14,323 nt of DNA from an archaeon (GTDB lineage Archaea; Thermoproteota; Bathyarchaeia; TCS64): contig JAHLLU010000017.1 of NCBI GenBank assembly GCA_020444005.1, forward strand, positions 1 to 14,323. The letters are read 5' to 3'. The notes under the pieces are model-generated. The model was not told the DNA's origin. It worked only from the letters and a program-made list of their open reading frames with translations, and did no database searches. Positions 1 to 2,215 of the stretch are shown here, piece after piece. Position numbers and translations under genes: made by a program. Within the stretch, counting starts at the first letter, position 1. Each line of letters begins with the position of its first letter.

Positions 1-581
1 TTACGGTCAACAACATCAACCTTCTCAGGAACAATCAGCTTTTCTTGGATATGCCCAATCAATCCGTCACTCATCAACATAACCGGGGTCCTGTAGGTCT
101 CGGCTAGATTGAATGCACGTACAGTGAGATCAAACATCTCCTGCACACTCCAAGGAGAGATGGCTATAACCTCATAATCGCCATGACTACCATACTTTGC
201 CTGATAGATGTCTTGTTGGCTTGGGTCTGTGGATTGTCCTGTGCTTGGTCCGCTACGCTGAACGTTAACAAGCACCAAGGGCGTCTCGGTCATATGAGCG
301 TAACCAACGTTCTCCATCATCAAGTCATAGCCGGGTCCACTTGTAGCTGTCATGGACTTTGCTCCCGCCCATGAGGCCCCGATTATACTTGCGATACTGG
401 CTATCTCATCCTCCATCTGCATGAAGATCCCGCCTACCTTGGGGAGTTCCCCTGAGATGTGGTGGCTTATCTCACTAGCCGGAGTAATAGGGTAACCCGC
501 GAAGAATTTACAACCTGCTCTTATGGCGCCCTCTGCACAGGCGATGTTACCCAAAACTAGGTGTCTTCCGGGTTTAAGCAT
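1..581 (-). CDS. korA: 2-oxoacid:ferredoxin oxidoreductase, alpha subunit (KorA-like), C-terminus cut by window edge
   Basis: This is the first 193 codons of the alpha subunit of a thiamine-diphosphate enzyme that oxidatively decarboxylates a 2-oxoacid, probably 2-oxoglutarate, to an acyl-CoA while reducing ferredoxin in the cytoplasm. Translating the minus strand from the ATG at 581 gives an intact frame to the edge. Family marks are AGYPITPASEI (residues 28-38), GASWAGAKSMTATSGPGYD and NVQRSGPSTGQSTDPSQQD, the conserved KorA/PorA-type pyrimidine-binding domain. The start overlaps the stop of the upstream ferredoxin gene by 8 nt, so the two are surely co-transcribed and translationally coupled. 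The KorA form is favoured over pyruvate or indolepyruvate enzymes by the VQRSGPSTG segment and the separate small ferredoxin subunit, but substrate identity is inference. The beta subunit would be expected just beyond position 1. Confidence 0.9.
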   Translation of the reverse strand, partial: MLKPGRHLVLGNIACAEGAIRAGCKFFAGYPITPASEISHHISGELPKVGGIFMQMEDEIASIASIIGASWAGAKSMTATSGPGYDLMMENVGYAHMTETPLVLVNVQRSGPSTGQSTDPSQQDIYQAKYGSHGDYEVIAISPWSVQEMFDLTVRAFNLAETYRTPVMLMSDGLIGHIQEKLIVPEKVDVVDR

Positions 582-806
582 CTGTTATCTCCTCCACATT
601 GATGGCAAAGTCTGGGCAGTATCTTTCGCACCATCTGCAGCCGATACAGTCTCCCTCGACTACTGGCTGAGTGCCGCCCAGCGCGGTTTTTTTCTCTGAT
701 TCTTTCAGAACCTTTCCTCCTCGTGTATTGCATACGTGAACGCATAGAAGGCAACCTTTGCAGTGTTCCGTGTCTATGGTTACTTTGAATTTTTTTGGCG
801 TTTCAT
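574..806 (-). CDS. korD: 2x[4Fe-4S] ferredoxin subunit of 2-oxoacid oxidoreductase (KorD-like), start region disrupted
   Basis: This small ferredoxin probably passes electrons from the 2-oxoacid oxidoreductase to the soluble ferredoxin pool. Two cluster motifs are visible: CKGCLLCVHVC, a Cx2Cx2Cx3C without the usual trailing proline, and CIGCRWCERYCP, the canonical form. They are separated by a loop with GGTQPVVEGD. The C-terminal frame ends at TAA 576-574, inside the korA start. The N-terminus is problematic. The open frame runs to an ATG at 915, but that extension (MVVLATRVVLATPLPR) is only translated palindromic repeat DNA. A GAGGTG followed closely by ATG at 806-804 gives MKRQK and then falls out of frame at an A7 tract (796-790). 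One extra A would give a natural MKRQKKFKVTIDTEHCKGC start. An in-frame ACG at 801-799, or slippage, are alternatives. The product is secure; the start is not. Confidence 0.85.
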
Positions 807-880
807 TGCACCTCGAAACGATGAATCTGTGATCAATATCGTTTCTGGGATAAAACAATGCGGGTACCCGGGGGAGGGGA

Positions 881-896
881 GTAGCCAATACTACCC
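881..896. repeat. Palindromic repeat copy 1, GTAG-CCAATA-CTAC
   Basis: GTAGCCAATACTACCC at this position is the exact reverse complement of 1194-1209. The core is itself a dyad: GTAG and CTAC arms around the 6-nt spacer CCAATA. With the next copy it forms an 18-nt tandem repeat (881-898 and 899-916). It lies just downstream of the Cas2-like gene as transcribed. Directly before it is a GC-rich stretch containing the palindrome GGGTACCC (862-869). Confidence 0.8.
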
Positions 897-897
897 G

Positions 898-913
898 GGT
901 AGCTAATACTACC
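898..913. repeat. Palindromic repeat copy 2, GGTAG-CTAATA-CTACC
   Basis: A second copy of the dyad with 5-bp arms GGTAG and CTACC around CTAATA. It differs from copy 1 by one base in the spacer (C to T). It overlaps the stop codon of the Cas2-like gene (911-909), so part of the repeat is coding. Confidence 0.75.
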
Positions 914-1190
914 ACCCTCTGAAACGATCTCCATGAAAAACCTCAACTAACCCATTATAGTGTTCGACAAGTTGTGCAGCCAACAACGCATCTCTCATGT
1001 TCTCCGCTATCAAAACACTGTATTGAATACGTGAAACTGTTGAGATGCTCATCATCTTTTCAAGATTCTTCCAAAACTTTGGAGGTGGTTTTTTCTCGAT
1101 GAAATCATAAGCAATCAGCCATAAAAACGAGTCATCATCCTTCTGATATTCCCCTAAAAACTGCTCAGCAAGACTCAGATTATGTTCCAT
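909..1190 (-). CDS. Small Cas2-like ferredoxin-fold protein, solitary, 93 aa
   Basis: The protein is not recognised with certainty. Its order of predicted elements suggests a Cas2/VapD-type ferredoxin fold: strand FLWLIAYDF (22-30) ending in an aspartate (D29) where Cas2 has its YD, helix PPKFWKNLEKMM (36-47), strand RIQYSVLIAEN (54-64) resembling the Cas2 R-V-Q-x-S-V-F strand, helix RDALLAAQLVEHYN (66-79), and final strand LVEVFHGD (81-88). An acidic segment of about 20 residues precedes the first strand, which is longer than in typical Cas2. No cas1, effector gene or CRISPR array is in the window. The ATG at 1190 has no Shine-Dalgarno sequence; instead a perfect hairpin-forming palindrome ends 1 nt upstream, and two more copies sit at its 3' end. 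Possible roles are a toxin-like nuclease, a nucleic-acid-binding protein, or the passenger of a small repeat element. The fold is inference from pattern only. Confidence 0.5.
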   Translation of the reverse strand: MEHNLSLAEQFLGEYQKDDDSFLWLIAYDFIEKKPPPKFWKNLEKMMSISTVSRIQYSVLIAENMRDALLAAQLVEHYNGLVEVFHGDRFRGW

Positions 1191-1191
1191 A

Positions 1192-1213
1192 GGGGGTAGT
1201 ATTGGCTACCCCC
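1192..1213. repeat. Palindromic repeat copy 3, perfect 8-bp stem abutting a start codon
   Basis: GGGGGTAG (1192-1199) and CTACCCCC (1206-1213) are perfect reverse complements around TATTGG, the reverse complement of the CCAATA spacer in copy 1. It ends one base upstream of the Cas2-like ATG (1190-1188). It could be an operator for a dimeric regulator, an RNA hairpin that controls initiation, or the terminal repeat of a small element. Confidence 0.85.
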
Positions 1214-1264
1214 CCTTAGCATCACTGTAAACAATCAAAACTGAACTAGGTTACAGGTGAAAAA

Positions 1265-2215
1265 CTAGTAACCCAGTTTCCTGAGTACCAGATTCGAGAC
1301 ACTGCTATCCTGAATCGCGATCCCTACCGACTTGAAAACAGTGACCGTGTCCTCTGGTGTGCGTCCTTTTTTCTGTCCCGAGACCAGTTCCTTCAACTCG
1401 GCGTGCACATGATCCCAAGTAATAGCCCCTTCCTCTATGGGTATGAGTATGTCTCCGGCCTCTAACTCGATGCCTTCCATGTCGTCAATAACCAGTTTGC
1501 TCTCAGCGACAGTAGCAGTATCAAGTTCTCTCCAGTCAGGATAAAATGCTCCGATGGCGCTAACATGCACCTTATCTTTTAGCCATTCTCGCTTCAATAC
1601 AGGTTTTGGGCTAGTAGTTGCCGTTAACACGATATCCGCGTCTCTGCATGCTTCCTCGCCTGATGTTGCTGGGATGACTTCTATTCCCAGCTTTTTTGAC
1701 ATGTCTTCTGAGAATTTTTTCCGTGCCTCAGGGTATAGATCAAAGACGAAAACTTTTTCGATGTCTCTTACTGTGCATGCTGCCCATGTCTGTGTTCTTC
1801 CCTGTACCCCTGCCCCGAATATTGCCACGGTCTTGGCGTCTTTTGGTGCGAGGTATTTGGCGGCTACGCCTGTGATGGCGCCTGTTCTCATTGCTGTGAG
1901 GTATGTGGCGTCCATGAATGCTTTTACCATGCCTGTCTCGGGGTCGTTTACCACGATCCATGCCACTGTTGTGGGTAGTCCTTTCTTTCTGTTGTCTGGG
2001 TATATGCTGATGATCTTTGTTGCCTGTGCATCTAGTCCTGTAAGGTAGCTGGGCATGAAGCTTATTGAGCCATTGTACTTGGGTACCATTATGGTGCTTC
2101 GTGTTGGTAGCACGACGTTTCCTTTGGCGTACTCCTTGAAGGCTTGTTCAACTGTCTCGATGGTCTCATCCATTGTCAAAAGTTTCTCGATATCCGCGTC
2201 ACTGAGGAAAAGCAT
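1265..2215 (-). CDS. Ornithine cyclodeaminase / mu-crystallin family NAD(P)-dependent enzyme (alanine dehydrogenase or ketimine reductase type)
   Basis: This 316-residue protein has the full family length. Visible are the substrate-binding lysine in QATKIIS (K67), R110 in TAMRTGAITG, and a Rossmann fold with GAGVQGRTQ (134-142). Archaeal members are known as alanine dehydrogenases, while mu-crystallin relatives reduce cyclic ketimines. Here the segment around the catalytic aspartate of true ornithine cyclodeaminase (GGD-x-PG) reads GAFYPDWRELD (222-232), matching the PDWRELD pattern of mu-crystallin. Ornithine cyclodeamination is therefore unlikely and imine or 2-oxoacid reduction more likely. 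The ATG at 2215 has no ribosome-binding sequence. A minus-strand TATA-like TTTTTATT (2254-2247) would give a leader of roughly 10 nt. The gene stands 74 nt upstream of the Cas2-like gene on the same strand, with no clear functional link. Confidence 0.85.
   Translation of the reverse strand: MLFLSDADIEKLLTMDETIETVEQAFKEYAKGNVVLPTRSTIMVPKYNGSISFMPSYLTGLDAQATKIISIYPDNRKKGLPTTVAWIVVNDPETGMVKAFMDATYLTAMRTGAITGVAAKYLAPKDAKTVAIFGAGVQGRTQTWAACTVRDIEKVFVFDLYPEARKKFSEDMSKKLGIEVIPATSGEEACRDADIVLTATTSPKPVLKREWLKDKVHVSAIGAFYPDWRELDTATVAESKLVIDDMEGIELEAGDILIPIEEGAITWDHVHAELKELVSGQKKGRTPEDTVTVFKSVGIAIQDSSVSNLVLRKLGY

What the first reader, a model, noticed from the sequence alone, without database searches (positions are those of the whole stretch)
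881..1213. Small Cas2-like gene bracketed by three copies of a palindrome GTAG-N6-CTAC
A 93-aa ORF lies between repeats in inverted arrangement: 881-896 is the exact reverse complement of 1194-1209, and a third copy with one changed base lies at 898-913. Each copy is itself a hairpin with conserved spacer CCAATA/CTAATA/TATTGG. The unit of about 330 bp looks like a miniature element with terminal inverted repeats, or a REP-like palindrome family tied to a nuclease-like protein, sitting between a ferredoxin gene and a dehydrogenase gene. No transposase is present. A repeat family with its own Cas2-fold partner would be new to me.
Basis: partly seen in the sequence, partly recalled or inferred. 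Interest (0 to 1): 0.75.

Follow-up and report, generated by a model that had tools for sequence, protein, structure and literature searches.

The report
Palindrome-bracketed Cas2-like mobile gene
A tiny archaeal gene for a Cas2-fold protein travels as a roughly 340-base unit with its own palindromes, and it has been inserted, flipped and lost to leave palindrome-only scars, so it looks like a very small mobile element built on a CRISPR-type protein without CRISPR.

Summary
A 93-aa ORF (909-1190, -) is bracketed by three palindromes (881-894, 899-912, 1196-1209). Their outer arms (876-896/1194-1214) head the list of inverted repeats in the window. The same unit lies at the same site in a Bathyarchaeota contig with flanks 95-97% identical, but inverted end for end. 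Relatives are rare (7 of 256 genomes of that class) and mostly sit at different sites. In 8 loci the flanks carry matching palindromes on both sides, differing by clade. Two sites are empty in relatives: ferredoxin/OCD in G003 and G246, and Zn-cluster/GNAT in 6 of 10 genomes. A third site keeps palindromes only (G249). G255 holds a palindrome followed by a truncated gene start. Palindrome arms covary, the gene is under purifying selection, and cas1 was found in none of 7 carrier genomes. Best reading: a new kind of minimal mobile element, REPtron-like in layout, whose only protein is a Cas2/VapD-superfamily relative acting on its own palindromes. Element status is well supported; that the protein does the moving is inferred. 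A sister clade sits beside ORB-like origin boxes.

The parts
876..1214 (.). the whole unit, between outer inverted repeats; inverted relative to L001
   Evidence: blastn: window 876-1214 matches L001 1149-811 on the minus strand at 94.7%, flanks match on plus at 95.0 and 96.6%
876..896 (+). outer palindrome 1 (GTAGCCAATACTAC core at 881-894), arm of the inverted repeat
897..916 (+). inner palindrome 2 (GTAGCTAATACTAC core at 899-912); contains the stop codon of the gene
909..1190 (-). gene for the 93-aa Cas2/VapD-superfamily relative
   Evidence: dN 0.0225, dS 0.239 against L001
1194..1214 (-). palindrome 3 (core 1196-1209), just upstream of the start codon (extended palindrome 1192-1213)
574..789 (-). 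flanking 4Fe-4S ferredoxin gene (the ORF can be extended to 915; the part conserved in relatives starts near 789)
1265..2215 (-). flanking ornithine cyclodeaminase/mu-crystallin family gene; used to find the empty sites
   Evidence: Pfam PF02423 1.8e-86

Best explanation
The unit is a minimal mobile element of Bathyarchaeota-type archaea: one gene for a small Cas2/VapD-superfamily relative, bracketed by one to several copies of a palindrome whose sequence goes with the protein clade. I propose that the protein, as a symmetric dimer (as Cas2 is known to be), recognises the palindrome, probably as an extruded hairpin or cruciform, and cuts or nicks it. Repair or strand exchange between palindromes then inverts the unit, deletes the gene leaving palindromes behind, or lets the unit insert elsewhere. 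SHOWN: the unit, its presence at sites that are empty in relatives, one inversion, a palindrome-only site, a truncated remnant, arm covariation, purifying selection, no cas1 found in carrier genomes. INFERRED: dimer binding, cleavage, and that this protein rather than host recombination drives the movement. The upstream palindrome, close before the start codon, may also serve autoregulation.
For: Same site, opposite orientation in L001. Ferredoxin/OCD site without the unit in G003 and G246 (gaps of about 148 and 95 bp instead of about 475). Zn-cluster/GNAT site: unit in G249 (gap 478 bp), while in 6 of 10 other genomes the pair is adjacent with no palindromes. Dipeptidase site: unit in G002 and G003, palindromes without gene in G249, nothing in G001. 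Truncated copy in G255: palindrome followed by ATG, MTRRSLA... and an early stop (sequence, translated by eye). Flank-shared words of 11-22 nt in 8 of 9 family loci against at most 12 in 136 controls. Motif tied to the gene: 10 of 12 GTAGTATTVRCTAC sites in 16 genomes flank it, reversed-pattern control 6; 3 of 7 places of the G255 type, control 0. Arm covariation: 81.0% of cells paired against 68.3% shuffled, 0 of 500 shuffles as high. Asp of the YDF motif at least 90% conserved. [quoted passage not shown] cas1 in 0 of 7 carrier genomes.
Confidence: 0.5

Rival explanations
1. Autoregulated gene: the Cas2-fold dimer is a DNA-binding repressor and the palindromes are its operators; the gene spreads only by ordinary gene transfer and the inversion is host recombination.
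For: In 8 loci the upstream palindrome ends 1-25 nt before the start codon, where an operator over an archaeal leaderless promoter would lie; palindromes differ by protein clade as cognate sites would.
Against: Palindromes also lie at the 3' end and overlap the stop codon in window, L001, L002 and L021; gain, gene loss with palindromes kept, and inversion are not expected of an operator pair.
Confidence: 0.2
2. Selfish toxin-antitoxin-like module: a Cas2/VapD-type RNase whose hairpin repeats, as RNA, act as inhibitor or substrate; it spreads by addiction.
For: VapD chains (6zi1, 3ui3) are among the Foldseek hits; the hairpin stems covary; patchy spread; repeats kept after gene loss.
Against: No recognised antitoxin gene beside it; no Rfam match in the window; palindromes on both sides and in both orientations. 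Nothing about RNA was testable here.
Confidence: 0.17
3. Chromosomal replication-type factor: the family works at origins, as its Thermoproteota clade beside ORB-like boxes suggests, and Bathyarchaeal copies are origin-like or ex-plasmid pieces.
For: 9 of 13 loci of that clade have ORB-like boxes within 700 bp upstream; one relative is fused to a Cdc6 C-terminal winged helix (PF09079, 2.3e-17).
Against: 0 ORB-like boxes in 127.6 kb of Bathyarchaeal loci; these copies sit between unrelated genes at varying sites.
Confidence: 0.08
4. Ordinary small gene with chance or terminator-like palindromes; the inversion is an assembly artefact.
For: MAG contigs; short repeats can confuse assemblers.
Against: The motif-gene link recurs in distant relatives; the inverted copies also differ by point mutations inside and outside; empty sites.
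Confidence: 0.05

Closest known systems
REPtrons: RAYT (REP-associated tyrosine transposase) genes flanked by GTAG REPs; IS200/IS605 elements
   Same: One small gene flanked by short palindromes in varied number and orientation; repeat type goes with the protein; hairpin-forming ends.
   Different: RAYTs are tyrosine transposases; here a Cas2-type fold, no Y1 transposase Pfam match and no invariant HxH. In REPs the GTAG tag is not base-paired (PMC3733652, passages read); here GTAG is part of the stem. No large dispersed repeat family.
Cas2 (CRISPR adaptation) and VapD interferases
   Same: Predicted fold, Asp after strand 1, sequence matches of relatives (P0051 PF09827 25.4 bits; PADLOC Cas2 2.4e-7).
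   Different: No cas1 found in 7 carrier genomes; own conserved N-terminal RKSLA-type stretch; flanked by private palindromes.
Cas2-like endonuclease of Bathyarchaeia virus family Chiyouviridae (PMC10848311, passages read)
   Same: Cas2 homologue in the same archaeal class, on a mobile replicon with two mini-CRISPR arrays.
   Different: That is a virus gene with CRISPR-type arrays. Its sequence was not compared here; my four viral-contig scans found no relative of the present family.
Casposons
   Same: Cas-type protein on a self-contained unit with inverted repeats (PMC6452270, passages read).
   Different: Casposons use Cas1, and known ones lack Cas2; here there is a Cas2-type protein and no Cas1.
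Sulfolobus UBP (ucm-binding protein at origins; PMC12141716, sections 7-8 and passages read)
   Same: Small archaeal protein linked to ORB origins, as may hold for the Thermoproteota clade.
   Different: UBP dimerises by a C-terminal strand swap and binds an 11-bp motif; a PDB search with the clade profile gave no match named so (3 weak hits).

Membership tests
Cas2 (PF09827) | Pfam gathering score | tested here: not met
   Window protein 13.2 bits against 23.8; relatives P0051 25.4 and P0062 24.2 pass
Cas2 (PF09827) | ferredoxin-like fold with acidic residue after beta 1 | tested here: met
   [quoted passage not shown] Cas2 entries top Foldseek, best E 1.3e-3, none under 1e-3; D29 at least 90% conserved. 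Predicted, not solved
Cas2 (PF09827) | works with Cas1 at a CRISPR array | tested here: not met
   PF01867 in 0 of 7 carrier genomes (may be incomplete); it rings in 9 of 14 control genomes
RAYT / IS200-IS605 TnpA | HUH and catalytic Tyr (Y1 transposase domain) | tested here: not met
   No Y1 transposase Pfam match up to E=1; no HxH among invariant columns of A3 or A4
RAYT / IS200-IS605 TnpA | gene bracketed by hairpin-forming palindromes | tested here: met
Casposon | Cas1 integrase | tested here: not met
Mobile genetic element (generic) | occupied and empty orthologous sites | tested here: met
Mobile genetic element (generic) | target-site duplication | tested here: inconclusive
   Filled and empty sites too diverged to read a junction
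Type III toxin-antitoxin | repeat RNA neutralises the protein | not testable with these tools
   needs expression assays

The most novel reading that the evidence does not exclude
A Cas2-fold protein that mobilises its own palindromes without Cas1: among the smallest autonomous elements, and a possible living picture of how a Cas2/VapD protein and short palindromic repeats were paired before or outside CRISPR; its sister clade is tied to replication-origin boxes and, once, fused to the Cdc6 DNA-binding domain.
Probability: 0.35. Interest if true: 0.95.

Novelty: categorically new. Interest (0 to 1): 0.8.

Why it matters
Cas2 is thought to come from a VapD-type toxin, perhaps by way of a casposon that once carried a Cas2 homologue; [quoted passage not shown] A free-living Cas2-fold gene that moves with its own palindromes makes that question testable by biochemistry. 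If the protein is the recombinase, it is a new recombination chemistry in about 340 bp. The origin-linked sister clade adds a candidate factor at archaeal replication origins.

Tried and rejected

In print: searches listed no paper whose title or shown abstract describes a Cas2-fold gene bracketed by palindromes or fused to Cdc6_C (two returned no paper at all). The library is open-access PMC only and I saw listings, so this is weak evidence of absence.

Full report
WHAT IS THERE. The window is an archaeal contig; its nearest relative L001 is titled Candidatus Bathyarchaeota. No whole genome is held for the window. Between a ferredoxin gene and an OCD-family gene lies a 93-aa ORF on the minus strand (909-1190). 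Three palindromes bracket it: 881-894 and 899-912 on one side, 1196-1209 on the other. The outer arms, 876-896 and 1194-1214, are 95% complementary over 21 nt and head the list of inverted repeats. The stop codon lies inside palindrome 899-912, and the start codon is one base from the extended palindrome 1192-1213.

THE PROTEIN FAMILY. A first search of 5.8 billion proteins gave 8 rows, the window's own protein included. With a wider profile (A3) 307 proteins reached E of 0.01 or better, 120 of them listed. The window protein alone is a weak Cas2 match, but two relatives pass the PF09827 cut-off (P0051 25.4 and P0062 24.2 bits against 23.8), and P0051 matches PADLOC Cas2 at 2.4e-7. Eight of 36 members of A4 match TIGR01573 cas2 at E up to 1 (best 1.5e-5). 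[quoted passage not shown] Foldseek ranks Cas2 entries first (8d3l_E, E 1.3e-3, probability 1.00) with VapD further down, but none reaches E 0.001. Sequence search of the PDB with the A3 profile gave only weak hits, among them the Cas2 SSO1404 at E 0.29. The Asp of the YDF motif is at least 90% conserved; L029 has Arg there.

PALINDROMES GO WITH THE GENE. Among 256 genomes of the class of G003 the profile finds 7 genomes and 9 loci. (Some loci were fetched twice: L003=L070, L026=L065, L027=L066, L028=L069, L029=L068, L033=L067.) Reading them shows palindromes next to the gene, with sequences that differ by clade. They are GTAGTATT(G/C)ACTAC types (window, L001, L002, L021, L003, L026, with G in place of the last-but-four A in window and L001), GGTACGTAATTACGTACC types (L027) and ACGAAATTATTTCGT types (L033). 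In L028 the gene is cut by the contig end and two partly palindromic copies lie downstream; L029 shows only weak repeats. The longest word shared by the two flanks was 11-22 nt in 8 of 9 loci tested (7 of 9 at least 14) and 7 nt in L068. Among 137 control ORFs the maximum was 12, not counting one row that is the L003 family gene fetched again. Some control ORFs come from overlapping loci. Across 16 chosen genomes GTAGTATTVRCTAC occurs 12 times. Ten copies flank the gene and two are elsewhere (G003:C82, G250:C245); both of those genomes carry the family, and the 9 genomes without a family hit have none. The reversed-pattern control gives 6. The G255-type pattern (1 mismatch) has 7 places: 3 at the gene, 3 elsewhere in G255, 1 in G238, control 0. 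The G002:C198-type pattern (1 mismatch) has 4 places: 3 at the gene, 1 in G240; its control has 4 places, so that test is weak.

STEM COVARIATION. For 24 GTAG-type palindromes (23 distinct), 81.0% of cells pair in an 11-bp stem against 68.3% in shuffles (0 of 500 as high); the covariation score is 0.355 against 0.201 (0 of 500); cells changed on both sides are 38 against 22.4 (0 of 500). Slid controls pair 26-56%. Two other measures (pairs with a change on both sides, 6 against 6.3; further pair types, 15 against 18.5) were below the shuffle means. The copies are related and were picked by a motif that fixes the inner part, so the shuffles are not independent trials. Outer arms vary (GGGG/CCCC, AGGC/GCCT, AACC/GGTT) but mostly stay complementary, and the centre is asymmetric. 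This fits selection for a hairpin, or for a two-fold symmetric site.

IT BEHAVES AS AN ELEMENT. (1) Inversion: window 876-1214 matches L001 1149-811 in reverse at 94.7%, while the flanks match forward at 95.0 and 96.6%. (2) Ferredoxin/OCD site: the pair is close together without the unit in G003 (L074, which carries family copies elsewhere) and G246 (L076); G248 (L073) has a different gene there, by eye DedA-like. (3) Zn-cluster/GNAT site: the unit is in G249; the pair is adjacent without palindromes in 6 of 10 other genomes (L146, L147, L150-L153). In the other 4 (L148, L149, L154, L155) no GNAT neighbour was found on the stretch. (4) Dipeptidase site: unit in G002 and G003; two palindromes without gene in G249 (L118); nothing in G001 (L116). 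G248, G250 and G256 (L115, L117, L119) also lack it, but their next genes differ. The left palindrome has opposite orientation in L002 and L021. (5) A remnant in G255:C76: a palindrome, then ATG and MTRRSLA followed soon by a stop (sequence printed, translated by eye). (6) The gene is under purifying selection: dN 0.0225, dS 0.239 between window and L001, from 16 differences in 282 bases.

NOT CRISPR. Cas1 (PF01867) was found in 0 of 7 carrier genomes, while the control rings in 9 of 14 named genomes. The genomes may be incomplete.

SISTER CLADE AT ORIGIN-LIKE BOXES. Of 398 genomes of the phylum, 14 match, one of them G003 itself; the other 13 gave loci L052-L064. I call them Thermoproteota from names such as Thermoprotei or Thermoproteales archaeon among close relatives; the genomes themselves are unnamed. 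ORB-like boxes (TCCANNNGAA-N5-GGGGT; the ORB sequence is recalled, not quoted from a paper) lie within 700 bp upstream of the gene start in 9 of 13 loci (22 of 28 boxes). L056 and L063 have none, and L062 and L064 have boxes only on the other side. None occurs in 127.6 kb of Bathyarchaeal loci. Inverted ORB pairs flanking an AT-rich stretch are the described layout of Sulfolobus oriC1 (PMC12141716, passages read). One relative, P0164, is fused to a Cdc6 C-terminal winged helix (PF09079, 2.3e-17). The tree sets this clade apart with weak support (59/79).

MECHANISM. My best reading is a palindrome-bracketed element whose Cas2-type dimer acts on its own palindromes. Filled and empty sites, inversion, gene loss and decay are shown by comparison. 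Binding, cutting and protein-driven movement are inferred. Autoregulation and a VapD-like toxin with hairpin RNA remain live rivals.

Noticed in passing
   Followed up: partly
protein P0164 (179 aa): A relative of that clade is fused to a Cdc6 C-terminal winged-helix domain (PF09079, E 2.3e-17).
   Followed up: partly
L073 2445-3228: In G248 the ferredoxin/OCD junction holds a different gene (by eye a DedA-like membrane protein), so this junction may be insertion-prone.
   Followed up: no
L104 1495-1600 (G250:C245): A GTAG-type palindrome with what look like two degenerate copies and no gene, between a transporter-like gene and a FEN1-like gene (by eye).
   Followed up: partly
L067 2150-2310 (G002:C198): An array of about five degenerate palindromes, period near 27 bp by eye, on one side of the gene.
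   Followed up: no
P0031: A close relative of the L002 protein is labelled Anaerolineae bacterium in one source; misbinning or transfer was not checked.
   Followed up: no
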